Positions 4,242 through 62,001 of a stretch of DNA of 64,000 nt are shown here, piece after piece. Position 1 is the stretch's first letter, and each line of letters starts with the position of its first letter. Position numbers and translations under genes: made by a program. The notes beneath the pieces are model-generated. The model saw only the letters and a program-made list of their open reading frames with translations, did no database searches and was not told where the DNA came from. This DNA comes from Solirubrobacter pauli (GTDB lineage: Bacteria > Actinomycetota > Thermoleophilia > Solirubrobacterales > Solirubrobacteraceae). The DNA lies in NCBI RefSeq assembly GCF_003633755.1, contig NZ_RBIL01000001.1:2155426-2219425 (forward strand), read 5' to 3'.

Positions 4242-6806
<2,565 letters not shown>

Positions 6807-53480: not shown

Positions 53481-53919
53481 GCATCGCCCGCTCGCCCGCC
53501 GTGCCCGGCTTGGGCAGCACGCCGAGGTCCATCGCGGCGCTGTAGACGTCGTAGAAGGCGCGGATGCGCAGGAAGCGGCCGTCGCCGTCGAGCTCCGCGT
53601 AGACGATCGCGTGCACCTCGAGCGCCTTCTTGGTCGGGTGGATGCGCCCGATCTCGCCCAGGTGCGTGCCGAGGATCCGGCAGGGGGCGGAGACGAACGT
53701 GCCGTCGCTCAGCCGCGCGCCGGTGCTGTTGACCCGCGCGTCCGGCATCGCCTTCCACAGCTGGCGGGCGTGCCTGGCGAGCCGCCGCGTGCCGATCAGC
53801 GGCTCCTCGGTCAGCGGGTCCTCGTAGTGGACCTCCGGGTTGCAGATGGACTCGAACCCGCGCGGATCGCGGCCGGACCAGGCGCGATCCCACGCGTCGA
53901 AGAGCTCGTCCACCTCCAT
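53449..53919 (-). CDS. SnoaL-like/NTF2-fold protein
   Basis: 156 aa. Alpha+beta cone fold pattern: ELFDAWDRAWSGRDPRGFESICNPEVHYEDPLTEEPLIG, LWKAMPDARVNSTG, APCRILGTHLG and IVYAELDGDGRFLRIRAFYDVYSAAMDLGVLP. This resembles polyketide cyclase-like or ester cyclase families. Catalytic identity is not clear. Confidence 0.78.
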   Translation of the reverse strand: MEVDELFDAWDRAWSGRDPRGFESICNPEVHYEDPLTEEPLIGTRRLARHARQLWKAMPDARVNSTGARLSDGTFVSAPCRILGTHLGEIGRIHPTKKALEVHAIVYAELDGDGRFLRIRAFYDVYSAAMDLGVLPKPGTAGERAMLMLRGFGLRG

Positions 53920-54029
53920 CGGACGCCCATGATGGCCGATGACGGGCGGGAGTGATTGCCCGTTTTCTTGCCCGACCGGGCGCCACGATCACGGACGTTC
54001 GGCGGTTGCGCGGTCTTCCGCGCGCGGGT

Positions 54030-54035
54030 TAGGGT
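54030..54035 (+). promoter_or_regulatory. -10 element TAGGGT, 9 nt before the beta-helix array
   Basis: TTGCGC (54006-54011), an 18-nt spacer and TAGGGT form a promoter ending 9 nt before the first ATG of the array at 54045. No Shine-Dalgarno is present. Confidence 0.5.
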
Positions 54036-54044
54036 CGCCTGCAG

Positions 54045-55682
54045 ATGAGACTTCGAGTGGCGCTCCTCGCCCTAGCCGCGAGCCTGGCGATAGCGGCGCC
54101 GGCCGCGGCGTCGACCTACACCGTGACCGGCTTCGGCGACGGCTTGTCCGGCTCGTGCCAACCGACCGGGGAGGGCGCAGTCTCGTGCACGACGCTCCGG
54201 GCCGCCGTGCAGTCGGCCAACGAAGGGGCCGACGAGGACGCGATCACCCTGTCGGCCGGTACCTACACCGTCAACTTCGGCGCCATCGTCGTCAACCAGG
54301 CCGTCACCATCAGCGGCGTCGGCACGCGCTCAACGGTGGTCAACGCCGCGGGCAACAGCGCGCCGGCGTTCACCGTCAGCGGCCCGGACGCGTTCTTCGG
54401 GAACCTGACCATCACCGGCGGCTCGGGCGCCAACCTGACCGTGGTGCCGGGCGGGGACGCGGGGCTCGCGTTCACGCGGCTGACCGGGGCGCAGACCGGC
54501 GTCGGCGCGGTCAACGAGGGCACGCTGACCGTCACCTTCAGCCTCATCGACACGAACCCGAGCGGTGGCATCAACAACGTCGGCGGAAGCGGCGCCGCGA
54601 CCCTGACCGTCGGCGGCTCGACGATCACGAACAACACGAATCACGGCATCGCCTCCACGGGCGGCTCGCAGAACGCGGTCGACCTGATCCACACGACGAT
54701 CGCCCGCAACGCCGGCGCCGGCATCATCTTCGACTCCGGCCAGCAGCCCGGGTCGGCGGACGCGTCGATCCTCGCGAACAACAGCGTCAACTGCAGCGGC
54801 GGGACGCTCGTAGGGCAGTTCAACGTGGAGAGCACCACCGGCTGCGCGCTCGACGCCGGGACCAACCGCGTGGTGTCGGATCCGCTGCTCGGGGCCGCGC
54901 TGAGCAACCAGGGCGGGTTCACGGACGTGCTGACGATCCCGGCCAACAGCCCGGCCGCCAACTACGTGTCGCCGTGCTTCCTGCTCCTCGACCAGCGCGG
55001 CTTCACCCGGCCCTCCGGCCAGCCGTGCGACGCGGGCGCGTACGACCGCGAAGCCGTCGACCCGGGGATCGTCGTCCCGCCGCCCCCGCCCGATCCTCCG
55101 GCGCCGCCGCCGCCCCCGCAGCCCACGCCCACGCCCTCGCCCGAGCCCACGCCGGTGGCGAACCAGTCGGTCGTCGGCGACGAGGAGCGCGGCACGGTGA
55201 AGGTCAAGCTGCCCGGCACGAGCACGTTCGTCGACCTCAACGACGTCAAGAGCCTGCCGAACGGCACGGAGATCGACACCCGCAGGGGCGCGATCAGGCT
55301 GAAGGCGGCGCCCAAGCCGGGCGCGCCGGTCGAGGAGGCGCTGTTCTACGACGGCCTGTTCAAGCTCAAGCAGTCGCGCGGCATCACCACGCTGACCCTG
55401 AGCGAGGCCCTGGACTGCACCAAGGCGAAGGGCAAGAAGGCGTCCGCCGCCGCGAAGAAGCCGAAGAAGCGCAAGCTCTGGGGCGACGGCAAGGGCGCGT
55501 TCCGCACGCAGGGCAAGTACAGCGCCGCCACCGTCCGCGGCACCAAGTGGCTGGTCGAGGACACGTGCACCACCACGACGGTGACGGTCAAGCAGGGTGC
55601 CGTCACGGTGGAGGACCTCGTCAAGAAGAAGCGCACCGTCGTTCGCGCCGGCAAGAAGTACGTGGCGCGGGCGAGACGATGA
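54045..55682 (+). CDS. Secreted beta-helix protein with C-terminal FecR-like module (array member 1)
   Basis: 545 aa. Signal peptide [20 protein letters not shown]. Residues 25-345 are a parallel beta-helix-like region that starts with [21 protein letters not shown] and ends with the [19 protein letters not shown] motif of choice-of-anchor Q proteins. A Pro-rich hinge (345-375) and a C-terminal module (380-545) follow: [42 protein letters not shown], a [14 protein letters not shown] block and [13 protein letters not shown], resembling FecR. No sortase or anchor signal. First of five tandem paralogues. Confidence 0.85.
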
Positions 55683-55863
55683 AGTTCGTCCACCTCGACG
55701 CAACTCGCGGCGTCCCCGCGGGTTCGACGATCGACACGGGAATGGGCGCCGTCGCGCTGAGGGCGGCGCCGAAGCCGGGCGCTGTGCCCGAGAAGGCGAC
55801 GTCCATGACGGGTTGTTCGAGGTGACCCAGACCAGCGGCCTGACGACGTCGACGCTGTTCGAG
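55681..55863 (+). pseudogene. Decayed C-terminal FecR-like module
   Basis: Between array members 1 and 2 the DNA encodes [18 protein letters not shown] and [20 protein letters not shown] in one frame, then after a one-base shift near 55803 [21 protein letters not shown] in another. These line up with the first half of the C-terminal module (compare [19 protein letters not shown] and [19 protein letters not shown] in member 2). It is a broken extra copy whose remaining part is lost. Confidence 0.75.
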
Positions 55864-57774
55864 GAGCGTGGCCGCCCCAAGGGCGGGCGGACCGTCCGCC
55901 GGGTCCTGCTCGCCGCGGCCGGCGCCGTGCTTGTCGGTGCTGCGCCCGCGCACGCGGCGACGTTCGCCGTCAACACGACGGCGAACAACTCGACGTGCAA
56001 CGCGCTCACCTGCTCGTTGCCGGGTGCGTTCAACGCGGCGCTCGCCACGCCCGAAGCGGACACGATCACGGTGCCGGCGGGCATCTACTCGGTGCCGGAG
56101 CTCACGACGACCGGCGCCCCGCGCGTGACGATCGTGGGTGCGGGCGCGAACGCGACCTTCATCCAGCCGGCCGCCACCACCCGCGTGTTCAGCGCGGGCT
56201 CGAACTCGTCGCTCGCGCTCGCTGACCTCACCGTCCGTGGCGGTCGCGGCGGGACCGGCAGCGGCGGCAACGTCCTCGCCCAGAGCGCCTCGACGGTGTC
56301 GCTCGCGGGTGTGCGCCTCACGGACGGCCAGGCGGCAACCGGCGGTGGGCTGGGCAGCCTCGGCGCCTCGTCGCTGACGATCGCCGAGAGCCTGATCGAC
56401 ACCAACACCGCGACCGGCGGCGGCACCGGCGGCGGCGTCTACCTCCGGGGCGAGACCTTTGGAACCACACTGACCGTCACGGACTCGACGATCGCGCGCA
56501 ACAGCGCGAGCACCGGCGCGGGGATCTGGAGCTCCGCACAGCCCGCGATGACGCTGCGCGGCGTGACGCTGGCCTACAACGCGGCTCGAAGCACGCAGCT
56601 CAGCGTCGGAGGGCTGCAGTCGTCGAACGGTGCGGGAGGCGCCGTGTTCCAGGGCTCGCTGATCACAGGCAACACCGCGCCCTTCGTCACCGGCTCGGAC
56701 ACGATCGACAGCCCCTCCAACTGCGCGATCACCGGCCCGGTGACCGACCAGGGCGGGAACGTCGAGGATGTCGCGCAGTGCGGCCTCGGCGCGTCGAGCC
56801 GGCCCAACACCAACGCACTCCTCGCCACGACGTTCGACACCTCCGAGCCGCCCGTCCTGACGCTCCCCGCGTCCAGCCCCGCGGTCGACTTCGCCGACTG
56901 CGCCGGCCGCACGCTCGACCAGCGCGGCGTGCCACGGCCCCAGGGCGCGCGCTGCGACGCCGGCGCGTACGAGTTCAACCCGGTGCCGACGACCGCGGTG
57001 GCGGGCGCGGCGCCGCCGTTCACGTTCAGCTCCAACGAGGCCGGCGCCACGTTCCAGTGCTCGCTGGACGGCGGGCCGTTCACGGCGTGCGCGTCGCCGT
57101 TCGACCCCGGCGCCGGACCGGGGACGCACACGCTCGCCGTCCGCGCGGTCGATGCCCAGGGGCAGCCTGACCCGAACCCGCAGACGGTGACGTTCACGGT
57201 CCAGCCGCCGCCGCCGACGCCGACCCCGACGGCCACGCCCAGCCCGACGGCGACGCCCGTCGCCGGTCGGGTGATCGTCGTCGGCCCGTCGCGGGGGACG
57301 GTGCGGGTGAAGGTCCCGGGGTCCAAGCGCTACGTCGACCTCGACGAGACGCGGGGCATCCCGGTCGGCTCGAGCGTCGACACGCGCAAGGGCCGCGTGA
57401 CGCTGACCGCGATCCCGAAGGCGGGCGCGAAGCCGGAGACCGCCGTGTTCTTCGACGGCCTGTTCAAGGTCACGCAGTCGCGGGGCATCACGACGCTGAC
57501 GCTCACCGAGCAGCTCGCCGCGTGCCCCAAGCGCAAGAGCGCCCGCGCGAGCGCCAAGAAGCCCAAGAAGCGCAAGCTCTGGGGTGACGGCAAGGGCTCG
57601 TTCCGCACGGCCGGCAAGTACAGCGCCGCCACGGTCCGCGGCACCAAGTGGCTCGTCGAGGACTCGTGCGCGGGCACGCTCACGCGGGTCACGCGCGGCT
57701 CCGTGCGGGTCGACCACGGCAGGAAGCGGATCATCCTGCGGGCCGGCAAGCGCTACCTGGCGAAGCCGCGATGA
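55822..57774 (+). CDS. Secreted beta-helix protein with Ig-like and FecR-like modules (array member 2)
   Basis: 650 aa from GTG 55822, the only plausible start codon before the signal peptide; it lies inside the decayed module and has no Shine-Dalgarno. The signal peptide [20 protein letters not shown] begins only about residue 29. The beta-helix runs from [16 protein letters not shown] to [19 protein letters not shown]. One Ig-like repeat follows ([19 protein letters not shown]), then a Pro/Thr hinge and the C-terminal FecR-like module ending [20 protein letters not shown] and [11 protein letters not shown]. The native start may have been lost by recombination. Confidence 0.8.
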
Positions 57775-59471
57775 AGCGCGCGCTCCTCACGCTGCTGGCC
57801 GCTCTGGCGTTCGCCGCGCCCGCGCAGGCCGCCACGATCGCGGTGACGACGTTCGACGACGGCGCGAACGCGTTCTGCCCGTCCGCGACGCAGTGCTCGT
57901 TGCGGGCCGCGATCGCACTCAGCAAGAGCAACGGCGGGACCAACAGCGACGACACGATCGTGCTGCAGGCGGGCACGTACCAGCTCGCGAACGCGCCGCT
58001 GTCCACGAGCACGACCAACCAGGGCGTGACGATCCTCGGCGCCGGCGCGGACAAGACGGTCATCCGCGCGGCGCTGAACCAACGGTTGCTCGAGGTGCAG
58101 GGCGAGTCGGCCTTCACGCTGCGCGGGCTCGCGTTGGCGGGCGGCGACGCCGGTGCCGACGCCAACGGCGGCAACGTCCTCGTGAGCTCCGCGGAGCTCC
58201 GGCTCGACCACGTCCGGGTCACCGGTGGGCGCGCGGTGCAGGGCGGCGGGATCGCCGCCCAGAACGGGCAGGTGCTCGCCGACCACACCCTGATCGACAA
58301 CAACGTCGCCACGCAGAGCGGCGGTGGAATCGCGAGCTACGGCGGCAGCGAGCTCTCCCTGTTGACCTCGACGGTGACCGGAAACAGCGCGCTACAGGGC
58401 GGCGGGATCTCCGTCAGCGACCAGCAGACGGTCGCGACGCTCCTCGCGCTGACGACGCTGGCGAACAACACCGCCTCGACATCACCCGGTGGCGGGCTGT
58501 TCGTCACCAACAGCGCCGGCGCGCCGACCGTCGCCGCCTCGATCGTCGCCGGCAATCTCGGCCGCCTCCTCCGCCAGGGACCGCTCGTGGCCTCCAACTG
58601 CGGCGGGATCCTCCCCACGGACGGCCGCGGGAACCTCGAGTCCGGCACGGACTGCTCGTTCGACGACCCGGCCTCGCGCCAGACGCCCAGCACCGGACTC
58701 GCGGCGGCGCTCGTCGACGACGGCGGCACCATGCCCGTCCTCCCGATCAGCGCCGACAGCGCTGCCCGCGACCTCGCCGGGCCGTGCACGAGCACGGACC
58801 TGCGGGACGTCCAGCGTCCGGTCGGCGGCGCGTGCGACGCCGGTGCCTACGAGTACGTCCCGCCGCCGCCACCGGCGGCGACGCCGACCCCGGAGGCCCA
58901 ACCGCCCGTCGTCACCCCGACCCCCACGCCAACCGTCGTGCCGGTGCCGACCCCCGTCGCCGGACGCGTGATCGTCGCGGCCCGGGACCGCGGGACCGTC
59001 CTGGTGAAGCCGAAGGGCGCGAAGCGCTACGAGCCGCTCGACGCCGCCAAGGGCATCCCGGTCGGCTCGACCATCGACGCGCGCAAGGGCCGCGTCCGCC
59101 TCACGTCGATCCCGAAGGCGGGTGCCCCGCCCGAGACGGCGGTCTTCTACGCCGGGATCTTCCGGATCACCCAGGCACGCGGCATCACCGACCTCAAGCT
59201 GGTCCAGGCGCTCGCCGCCTGCCCGCGGGGCAAGGCGAGCAGCGCCGCGAAGAAGCCGAAGAAGCGCCGGCTCTGGGGCGACGGCAAGGGCTCGTTCCGC
59301 ACCAGCGGCAAGTACAGCGCCGCCACCGTCCGCGGCACCAAGTGGCTCGTCGAGGACTCCTGCGCGGGCACGCTCACGCGGGTGGCGCAGGGCAGCGTGA
59401 CCGTCCGCCACGGCAAGCGGACGATTGTCGTACGCGCCGGCAAGCGGTATCTGGCCCGTCCTAGACGCTAG
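57771..59471 (+). CDS. Secreted beta-helix protein with FecR-like module (array member 3)
   Basis: 566 aa from ATG 57771 (ATGA with member 2). Signal peptide [19 protein letters not shown]. The beta-helix (20-360) starts at [18 protein letters not shown] and ends at [16 protein letters not shown]. There is a Pro/Thr hinge and the C-terminal module with [54 protein letters not shown] and [20 protein letters not shown]. No Ig-like repeat. Coupled to member 2 and 52 nt before member 4. Confidence 0.86.
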
Positions 59472-59523
59472 AACAGGAATTCAGGCGCGTGGCGGGTTAG
59501 CCTCGTGGCAAGGAGGCGGAGGA

Positions 59524-62001
59524 ATGTCGATGCGGTTCACACGGACGGTCTTGTTGATGGTGCTCGCGTGCTTCGCGATCGCCCCGGCTGCGCACGCGGC
59601 GACCTTCCAGGTCACGACGTTCGGCGACGACCCGAGCGACGCGTGCTCGGGCACGAGCTGCCGGTCGATCCGCGCGGCCGTCGCGGCAGCGGCGCTGTCC
59701 ACCGGGCCGGACACGGTGCGGGTCCCCAGCGGTGACTACCAGCTCGCGCAGGGCCAGATCCTGCTCACGTCCGACGTGACGATCGAGGGCGATGGCGCGC
59801 GCACGACGATCGTGCGCGGCAACGCGAGCGCCTTCCGGGCGTTCGAAGTGCCGACCGGCGTGACCGCGTCGATCACCGGCGTGAGCCTCGTCGGGGGTCG
59901 GGCGACCGACGAGAACAGCCCGACGTTCTACGCCGGCGGCCTGATCCGCAACTCGGGCTCGCTCACGCTCAGTCGCGTGCGGGTGACGGGCGGCTCCGCT
60001 TCCAGCGGCGGCGGCATCGCCAACGTCGGCGGCACGATGGCGATCGACCGCAGCCTGATCCACGGCAACACCGCGAACATCGGCGGCTCGGACTCAGGCG
60101 GGATCGTGAACCAAGGCGGCGGCAACCTCGTCGTACGCAACACGACGATCGCCTTCAATCACGCGAACGCCGGCGGCGGCGCGTACGCCTCCTGGGGCGG
60201 AAGCCAGGCCCGGCCGAACACAGCGCTGTTCGAGTTCGTCACGATCGCGCGCAACACCGCCGGCAACGGCAACGGCGGGGTCGCCTTCGACTCGGGCGCT
60301 GGGGACAGCCTGCGCGTCCGCGGCTCGATCATCGCGGCGAACGGCACGACCAACTGCGCGGGAACTCCGGAGTCGATCGACGCGAACTTCACGGACGACA
60401 CCTCGTGCGGGATCGTCCCGACCAGCGCGCCGCTCGTATCCGACGAGCTGACCAACCAGGGCGGCGAGACCAACGTCGTGAACCTGACGTCGGGGAGCCC
60501 CGCCCTGGAAGCCATCCCGGCCGGCCAGTGCCTGCCGACCGACCAGCGCGGCGTCACCCGCCCGGTCGGTGCGGCGTGCGACGCGGGCGCGCTCGAAGTG
60601 GGCACCGCGCCGCCGGTGGTCAGCTACCCCGCGCAGGACGGCTTCACGAACGACAATCCGCTGACGATCGCGGGCAACGGCGTCGCGCCCGGGGCGGCGG
60701 TGGAGATCTTCGAAGGCGGGACGACCCCGATCGGGTTCACCGAAGCCGACGGGGACGGCAACTGGTCGATCCCGCTGGCCGCCGACCAGGCCGCCGGGCT
60801 GCACACCTACACCCTCACGGCCAACGACGGCTCGGGCGACTCGACGGCAACGACCCACCGCGTGACGTTCGACTACGAGGCCCCGCAGACGCTCCTCGGC
60901 GAAGTCCCGCCGTCGGCGACGAACCGCTCGAACGTCACGTTCACGTTCAGCTCGACCGAGCCTGGCACGTTCGAGTGCAGCCTCAGCGGCCCCGGTCGCG
61001 ACCCGGAAGCCGTCCCCTGCGACGCGGGGAGCATCACCTACGACGGCCTCGCGAACGGCTCATACGCGTTCCAGGTGCGCGCGGTCGATCGCGCGGGCAA
61101 CGTCGACCAGTTCGAGAGCTACGAGTTCCAGGTCGACTCCGGCCTGATCGCCCAGCCGACCGTGGGTGAGCCGGCGGTCGAGCCGAGCGCCGCCACGATC
61201 ACGTTCGCCAGCTCGCAGGCCGAGCGGACGTTCCGCTGCCGGCTGGAAGGACCCGGCCGTGACGGCGCGTTCCAGGACTGCGCGTCGCCGCAGCGCTACG
61301 ACGGGCTCGCCGCGGGCGCCTACACGTTCACGGTGCGCTCGAGTGACCGGGCGGGCAACTTCGCCGACTCGGCTCCGCGCACGTTCTCGGTCGCCGGTCC
61401 GCCGGTGCAGACGCAGCCCGTGGCGACGGCCAGCCCGGTCGCGACGCCCGCCCCGACCCCCACAGCCACGCCGACCCCCACGCCCACGGTCAACGAGGAC
61501 GTGACGATCCGCCCGACGGGCAAGGTCCTGGTCAAGGTGCCGGGGACGAACCAGTTCATCCCGGTGAACCGGCTCGAGGACGTGCCGCTCGGGTCGGAGA
61601 TCGACACGACCAACGGCCGCGTGGTGCTGCGGTTCGAGTCGGAGAAGGGCAAGGTCCAGACCGCCACGTTCTACGGCGGCGTCTTCCGGATCACGCAGGT
61701 GGGGAAGATCCTCGACCTCAAGCTGACGGAGCCGCTGGCGGCGTGCCCGAAGCGGGGCAAGGCGGCCACGGCGCAGAGCAAGAAGAAGGCGAAGAAGCGC
61801 AAGCTCTGGGGGGACGGCAAGGGGTCGTTCCGCACCAGCGGCAAGTACAGCGCGGCCACCGTGCGCGGCACGAAGTGGCTGGTCGAGGACTCGTGCGCGG
61901 GCACGCTGACGCGGGTGGCGACGGGCGTCGTGCAGGTCAAGCACGGCAAGAAGACGCTGCTGCTGCGCGCGGGGAAGCGGTACCTGGCCAAGCCGCGCTA
62001 A
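59524..62001 (+). CDS. Secreted beta-helix protein with three Ig-like domains and FecR-like module (array member 4)
   Basis: 825 aa from ATG 59524 with GGAGG 7 nt upstream. Signal peptide RFTRTVLLMVLACFAIAPAAHA. The beta-helix (25-360) runs from GTSCRSIRAAVAAAAL to DQRGVTRPVGAACDAGALE. A bacterial Ig domain (about 365-450, NPLTIAGNGVAPGAAVEIFE) and two Ig-like repeats of the FxCSL type (FECSLSGPG, FRCRLEGPG) follow. Then a Pro/Thr hinge and the C-terminal module ([65 protein letters not shown]). Confidence 0.87.
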   Translation: MSMRFTRTVLLMVLACFAIAPAAHAATFQVTTFGDDPSDACSGTSCRSIRAAVAAAALSTGPDTVRVPSGDYQLAQGQILLTSDVTIEGDGARTTIVRGNASAFRAFEVPTGVTASITGVSLVGGRATDENSPTFYAGGLIRNSGSLTLSRVRVTGGSASSGGGIANVGGTMAIDRSLIHGNTANIGGSDSGGIVNQGGGNLVVRNTTIAFNHANAGGGAYASWGGSQARPNTALFEFVTIARNTAGNGNGGVAFDSGAGDSLRVRGSIIAANGTTNCAGTPESIDANFTDDTSCGIVPTSAPLVSDELTNQGGETNVVNLTSGSPALEAIPAGQCLPTDQRGVTRPVGAACDAGALEVGTAPPVVSYPAQDGFTNDNPLTIAGNGVAPGAAVEIFEGGTTPIGFTEADGDGNWSIPLAADQAAGLHTYTLTANDGSGDSTATTHRVTFDYEAPQTLLGEVPPSATNRSNVTFTFSSTEPGTFECSLSGPGRDPEAVPCDAGSITYDGLANGSYAFQVRAVDRAGNVDQFESYEFQVDSGLIAQPTVGEPAVEPSAATITFASSQAERTFRCRLEGPGRDGAFQDCASPQRYDGLAAGAYTFTVRSSDRAGNFADSAPRTFSVAGPPVQTQPVATASPVATPAPTPTATPTPTPTVNEDVTIRPTGKVLVKVPGTNQFIPVNRLEDVPLGSEIDTTNGRVVLRFESEKGKVQTATFYGGVFRITQVGKILDLKLTEPLAACPKRGKAATAQSKKKAKKRKLWGDGKGSFRTSGKYSAATVRGTKWLVEDSCAGTLTRVATGVVQVKHGKKTLLLRAGKRYLAKPR

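What the first reader, a model, noticed from the sequence alone, without database searches (positions are those of the whole stretch)
55681..55900. Broken module between array members 1 and 2, and probable loss of the native start of member 2
A frameshifted half-module sits between the genes, and the signal peptide of member 2 is fused in frame to its tail without ATG, GTG or Shine-Dalgarno near the expected start. The only nearby start, GTG 55822, gives a 28-residue leader before the signal peptide. This looks like a deletion or recombination scar.
Basis: seen in the sequence. Interest (0 to 1): 0.5.

Follow-up and report, generated by a model that had tools for sequence, protein, structure and literature searches.

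The report
Scar of a lost array gene
Between two neighbouring genes for secreted proteins of a soil bacterium lies the broken tail-end of a third gene that a related species still has whole, and the damage also removed the normal start signal of the next gene, which probably now starts a little further upstream.

Summary
Observation confirmed; interpretation supported and made specific. 55685-55892 is the relic of the C-terminal FecR-like tail of a lost array gene, X. In G003 (apparently Solirubrobacter phytolaccae) X sits whole in this slot, between the orthologues of members 1 and 2. The relic matches X at 165/194 nt and groups with it (ultrafast bootstrap 97-99). About 1.28 kb of X body and ~236 nt of its tail end are gone; a 1-nt gap at 55802/55803 breaks the frame. 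In 4 of 4 relatives with an alignable junction member 2 starts with GTG; here that codon is GTC (55894). Relatives show no strong Shine-Dalgarno there either: starts overlap stops. Member 2 is still open with GC3 0.95 and only a slightly longer branch, so it is probably still made. Likely route (inferred): gene 1 stop/ATG overlap (55679), a 48-codon relic ORF, then a GTGA overlap restarting at GTG 55822, adding 24 residues before the native start position. The GTGA comes with the module's KVTQ codons and needs no selection. A sequencing indel could explain only the frameshift. Another species (G002) has a second such relic. Ordinary gene decay with a neat restart; modest interest.

The parts
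54027..54037 (+). promoter-like motif GGTTAGGGTCG upstream of member 1; possible promoter of a member 1-2-3 operon
   Evidence: motif GGTTAGNNTCG: 11 hits in the window and six relative array loci, 11 of 11 on the + strand just upstream of an array member; none upstream of members 2 and 3; promoter role inferred
54045..55682 (+). array member 1 (secreted, choice-of-anchor Q / beta-helix body plus FecR-like tail); orthologue of G003 gene A
   Evidence: NCBIfam NF041518; alignment and tail tree with G003_A
55679..55825 (+). 48-codon relic ORF: ATG overlapping the member-1 stop (ATGA), ends TGA 55823-55825 overlapping GTG 55822 (GTGA)
   Evidence: read directly
55685..55892 (+). relic of the tail module of lost gene X (front half and part of the linker; similarity weak after 55878)
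   Evidence: 102/118 and 63/76 nt identical to G003 X tail; tree support 97-99 with G003_X; profile hit E=8.4e-11
55802..55803 (+). 1-nt gap relative to X, breaking the module frame
   Evidence: alignment
55822..55824 (+). GTG in the member-2 frame; most likely present start of member 2
   Evidence: in frame, GTGA overlap; use as start inferred
55894..55896 (+). GTC at the position of the native member-2 start (GTG in relatives)
55897..57774 (+). array member 2 (signal peptide, choice-of-anchor Q body, FecR-like tail), still open
57771..59471 (+). array member 3, joined to member 2 by ATGA overlap

Best explanation
The stretch is the scar of a lost gene, X, that stood between members 1 and 2 of a tandem, translationally coupled array of secreted proteins. 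A deletion joined the region of X's start to the middle of X's own C-terminal FecR-like tail (about 1.28 kb lost). Further indels broke the remaining tail: a 1-nt loss at 55802/55803 and loss of about 236 nt of the tail end, with X's stop and member 2's GTG (GTC now). Shown: the relic's identity, its slot, the missing parts and the GTC. Inferred: member 2 is still translated. Ribosomes ending gene 1 restart at ATG 55679, read the 48-codon relic ORF, stop at TGA 55823 and restart at the overlapping GTG 55822 in the member-2 frame, making member 2 with 24 extra residues ahead of the native start position of its signal peptide. The confidence given is for the gene-loss relic; I put the restart at GTG 55822 at about 0.6.
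For: X intact in the same slot in G003. Relic groups with G003_X at ultrafast bootstrap 99 (full tails) and 97 (tail front); 165/194 nt identical. No better candidate for X elsewhere in the window's genome: of 17 matches the best is member 1 at 59%, and one weak match is the relic. Start read as GTG in G003, G004, G001, G006 (4 of 4 alignable junctions; G001 and G006 nearly the same), GTC here. Relic-specific changes fall 4/6/1 on codon positions 1/2/3, against 2/2/11 and 0/0/1 for the X-type tails of G004 and G003 (counts; Fisher p=0.0013). Member 2: 624 codons counted from 55900 without a stop, GC3 0.95 as in relatives; window-branch dN about 0.157 against 0.120 (G003) and 0.149 (G004), my arithmetic from the distances. 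Stop/start overlaps without strong Shine-Dalgarno are usual at these junctions. Translation was strictly coupled in 13 of 14 overlapping gene pairs tested by Huber et al. 2019 (PMC6728339, abstract and passages).
Against: No RNA, ribosome or protein data. Huber et al. found that removing the Shine-Dalgarno lowered reinitiation in 4 of 5 E. coli pairs (passage), so a weak-site restart at 55822 may be inefficient. The window branch of member 2 is slightly the longest of the three in dN and also in the body tree (0.40, against 0.23 for G003 and 0.36 for G004). With two member-2 tails added as controls the codon-position test is weak (10:1 against 21:18, p=0.035, uncorrected, chosen after seeing the data). 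pN/pS of the relic against X (0.13/0.16) is not clearly different from intact tails (0.15/0.21 and 0.18/0.32). The GTGA overlap is not evidence of selection: 139 of 180 one-base deletions in the intact X tail give such an overlap. TTG 55813 is an alternative start. The site before GTC 55894 scores somewhat better for Shine-Dalgarno pairing (-7.9) than that before GTG 55822 (-5.1), though GTC is not a usual start. The number and order of deletions near 55892/55894 cannot be resolved.
Confidence: 0.9

Rival explanations
1. Member 2 lost its start and is no longer made: a silent gene that has not yet decayed. The scar is the same gene-loss relic.
For: Native GTG replaced by GTC, X stop gone, no array promoter motif and no strong Shine-Dalgarno at the possible starts; slightly longest branch of three.
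Against: 624 codons without a stop, GC3 0.95, branch only slightly longer than in relatives; only 3 window-specific base changes in its tail, in 2 codons, although both change the residue; member 3, which overlaps member 2's stop, is intact.
Confidence: 0.17
2. Sequencing or assembly error: a false 1-nt gap near 55803 hides an intact module.
For: A single-base gap in GC-rich sequence is a common error type (general knowledge); no reads could be checked.
Against: Putting the gap down to error leaves the missing X body, the missing end of the tail, the lost stop and the GTC unexplained.
Confidence: 0.04
3. The half-module is an extra tail copy inserted or duplicated from another array gene, not the relic of a gene that stood there.
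For: Tails seem to recombine in this family: G004 gene 1 looks like an A body with an X-type tail.
Against: Among the seven array loci compared, the best match is X of G003 from the same slot (101/117 nt); the best copy in the window's own array is 81/117; tree support 97-99. Tails outside the arrays were compared only by profile, not by nucleotide identity.
Confidence: 0.04

Closest known systems
Gene relic (truncated pseudogene) left by deletion in a tandem gene array
   Same: Body lost, decaying fragment left in the orthologous slot, intact copy in a relative.
   Different: The relic lies in a chain of stop/start overlaps and took the next gene's start codon with it.
Translational coupling by termination-reinitiation at stop/start overlaps (Huber et al. 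2019, PMC6728339; abstract and passages seen)
   Same: 4-nt overlaps link members here and in G003.
   Different: Here the middle cistron is a 48-codon gene relic; coupling is inferred, not measured. The overlap at 55822 is GTGA; that word has 0 occurrences in the paper's main text.
Overlaps formed after loss of a start or stop codon and use of another one in the adjacent gene (Fonseca et al. 2013, PMC3887535; abstract and start of text seen)
   Different: The replacement start lies in a gene relic, and deletion rather than point change alone was involved; the paper holds 5'-end extension to be the rarer route.
Choice-of-anchor Q / beta-helix secreted proteins with a FecR-like tail
   Same: Members 1-5 match NCBIfam NF041518 (5 of 5 scanned); the tail has weak FecR hits.
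   Different: The relic itself keeps only the tail's front.

Membership tests
Relic of array gene X | closest to X among the tail copies compared | tested here: met
   seven array loci (101/117 in G003; next 90/117 in G004, G001 and G006); tree 97-99
Relic of array gene X | same slot as intact X | tested here: met
   G003 order A - X - member 2
Relic of array gene X | cannot encode X | tested here: met
   body and tail end missing, frame broken; no better candidate for X elsewhere in the genome
Relic of array gene X | relaxed protein constraint in the relic | tested here: inconclusive
   p=0.0013 against X-type tails, p=0.035 against four controls; pN/pS not clearly different
Coupled termination-reinitiation | stop/start overlap or very short gap between cistrons | tested here: met
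   ATGA 55679, GTGA 55822, ATGA 57771
Coupled termination-reinitiation | downstream translation depends on upstream translation | not testable with these tools
   needs reporter or ribosome profiling
Choice-of-anchor Q domain protein (member 2) | NF041518 above cutoff | tested here: met
   50.7 bits, cutoff 25
FecR-like tail | Pfam PF04773 or FecR fold | tested here: inconclusive
   PF04773 in 7 of 10 tails at E<=1, best 0.00083, not among the listed hits of the five whole proteins at 0.001; Foldseek best hit PupR signalling domain 6ovk, E=0.011, none at 0.001, model mean pLDDT 67.9

The most novel reading that the evidence does not exclude
Tail relics are kept on purpose in such arrays: after the body of a member is lost, selection keeps a short tail-derived ORF as a relay cistron that hands ribosomes from the previous member to the next. 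The window (48 codons, ATGA in, GTGA out) and G002 (an 80-codon tail-derived ORF with a TGATG overlap out) would be two independent cases.
Probability: 0.13. Interest if true: 0.5.

Novelty: new member of a known kind. Interest (0 to 1): 0.28.

Why it matters
It catches a tandem operon after loss of one member and shows how the next gene can survive losing both its start codon and its coupling stop. The junction is small enough to test with a two-reporter construct, and relatives suggest three fates of one slot (kept in G003, apparently fused in G004, relic here).

Tried and rejected
Sequencing error as the whole cause: rejected, because several independent parts are missing. Module copied from elsewhere: disfavoured on identity and tree. 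Relocation of X in the window's genome: no better candidate; one full-length but distant match (36%, one TGA inside) lies on another contig. The GTGA restart as a sign of selection: rejected as evidence, 139 of 180 one-base deletions give it. dN/dS of member 2 as a clean test: values 0.44-0.63 over the six pairs, so only branch comparison was used. Own promoter for member 2: a generic scan of 53900-59600 found 0 promoter-like sites and the array motif is absent there. Papers: 2 for 'choice-of-anchor Q' or 'CSLREA', listings only, on Acinetobacter; 46 on translational coupling, of which two were opened; 0 for Solirubrobacter with beta-helix; 4 unrelated listings for deletion-scar terms. Nothing wider is claimed about what is in print.

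Rows left out: 7 genus genomes were searched, but the junction was aligned only for G003, G004, G001 and G006; the nearest G002 hit (50%) seems to start with ATG after an intergenic stretch and G005 has no clear orthologue. The trees hold no G005 or G006 rows, and the tail trees lack G003 member 2 because my pattern missed its tail. Nucleotide matching used seven array loci, one strand.

Full report
Setting. The window holds an array of genes for secreted proteins: signal peptide, choice-of-anchor Q / beta-helix body (NCBIfam NF041518 in 5 of 5 members scanned), proline-rich linker, and a C-terminal tail module. The tail gives weak FecR hits (PF04773 in 7 of 10 tails at E<=1, best 0.00083); its model (mean pLDDT 67.9) is closest to the PupR signalling domain (6ovk, Foldseek E 0.011, none at 0.001). 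The tail profile matches 78 of 146 genomes of the family. Two of the relatives appear to be Solirubrobacter: contig lengths of G003:C89 and G004:C189 equal those of S. phytolaccae KCTC 29190 and S. taibaiensis KCTC 29222 records.

Observation. Gene 1 ends at 55682. A tail-like sequence follows at once, in two frames separated by a 1-nt gap at 55802/55803, and the second frame runs without a stop into the signal peptide of member 2. In-frame starts near it are TTG 55813 and GTG 55822; the native place holds GTC 55894.

What was lost. In G003 the orthologue of member 1 (A, L013:723-2357) is followed by X (L013:2354-4081, 575 aa) and then the orthologue of member 2 (L013:4078-5958), each joined by a 4-nt GTGA overlap. 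The relic aligns with the X tail at 102/118 nt (55685-55802) and 63/76 nt (55803-55878), with weaker similarity to about 55892. In trees of tails the relic joins G003_X with ultrafast bootstrap 99 (full tails) or 97 (front part) (13 intact tails, G003 member 2 missed by my pattern, no G005 or G006). Ungapped, segment 1 matches 101/117 in G003, 90/117 in G004, G001 and G006, 81/117 in the rest of the window's array, 71 in G002, 60 in G005, and at most 57 for 20 shuffles. Searched with X, the window's genome gives 17 matches: the best is member 1 (59% identity), one weak match is the relic, and none is a better candidate for X.

Missing parts. Against G003, about 1.28 kb from X's start to the middle of its tail and about 236 nt of the tail end are gone, with X's stop (from the alignments). 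A 9-base stretch ACCGTCCGC before the signal peptide also occurs in the intact tail, so the last join may have used it; one deletion plus a G-to-C change fits equally well.

Start of member 2. Relatives read GTG: GTGA overlap in G003, TAAGTG in G004, TAGGTG in G001 and G006. The window has GTC in register. Pairing scores to a 16S tail recalled from memory are weak at the coupled starts scored (-3.5 to -5.2 kcal/mol, four in relatives and member 3 here) and at GTG 55822 (-5.1), against -7.5 at member 1, -12.5 at member 4 and -7.9 before GTC 55894. So the missing Shine-Dalgarno is not itself a loss. A motif GGTTAGNNTCG lies just upstream of member 1, member 4 and the next array gene but not of members 2 and 3 (11 hits in the window and six loci, 11 of 11 on the + strand upstream of array members), which suggests that members 1-3 form one operon; a generic scan found no promoter.

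Is member 2 alive? From 55900 it has 624 codons without a stop, GC3 0.95 as in relatives. From pairwise dN (0.276, 0.305, 0.268) I compute branch values 0.157 (window), 0.120 (G003), 0.149 (G004): slightly the longest, not clearly accelerated; the body tree says the same (0.40, 0.23, 0.36). In its tail only 3 window-specific base changes were seen, in 2 codons, both changing the residue. The relic by contrast shows 4/6/1 changes at codon positions 1/2/3, against 2/2/11 (G004 X-type tail) and 0/0/1 (G003 X): Fisher p=0.0013; with two member-2 tails added as controls (3:0 and 14:6) p=0.035. These tests were chosen after the fact, and pN/pS of the relic (0.13/0.16) is not clearly different from intact tails (0.15/0.21, 0.18/0.32).

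Mechanism. ATG 55679 overlaps gene 1's stop; the relic ORF of 48 codons ends at TGA 55823, overlapping GTG 55822 in the member-2 frame. Restart there would give member 2 with 24 extra residues before the native start position. Translation was strictly coupled in 13 of 14 overlapping pairs tested in Haloferax volcanii and E. coli, though removing the Shine-Dalgarno lowered it in 4 of 5 E. coli pairs (PMC6728339, abstract and passages). The overlap needs no selection: the KVTQ codons of the intact module carry GTGA in the shifted frame, and 139 of 180 one-base deletions would expose such an overlap.

Second case. Of 95 tail matches in 7 genus genomes, 5 cover less than 60% of the profile: this relic; G002:C2:429111-429320, between two array members; G002:C7:189890, a tail-end fragment that looks decayed; G003:C99:30024, at the end of an RHS-like frame; and G003:C33:84292, which on reading is a divergent tail in an open frame. 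In G002 the relic is an 80-codon ORF (counted from its ATG) whose stop overlaps the next start (TGATG).

Verdict. A well-supported gene-loss relic with start-codon loss; the restart is likely (about 0.6) but untested. Known kind, modest interest.

Noticed in passing
L015 reversed, about 5199-5441 (G002:C2, around 429111-429320): A second tail-module relic between array members in G002: an 80-codon ORF keeping the module front and the last residues, its stop overlapping the next gene's start as TGATG.
   Followed up: partly
L040 (G003:C99:30024-30128, - strand): An RHS-like frame whose C-terminus ends in a fragment of the array tail module ([25 protein letters not shown] then stop); RHS is my reading, no family search was run.
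   Followed up: no
window 54027, 59495, 62040 (+): Motif GGTTAGNNTCG shortly before a start codon, found only before array members (11 of 11 hits); 10 of the 11 have TTGC or TTGT 21 bases before the motif. Possible promoter giving very short leaders.
   Followed up: partly
L014:3091-4716 (G004 gene 1): Looks like an A-type body joined to an X-type tail, as if a clean deletion had fused two array members in the same slot.
   Followed up: partly
window 54045-55682, alignment columns about 30-90: This part of member 1 is nearer to X and to G001 gene 1 than to A, while most of the rest is nearer to A: possible gene conversion.
   Followed up: no
L041 (G002:C7:189890-189994): A tail-end fragment outside the array without the module front and with extra residues; looks decayed.
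   Followed up: no
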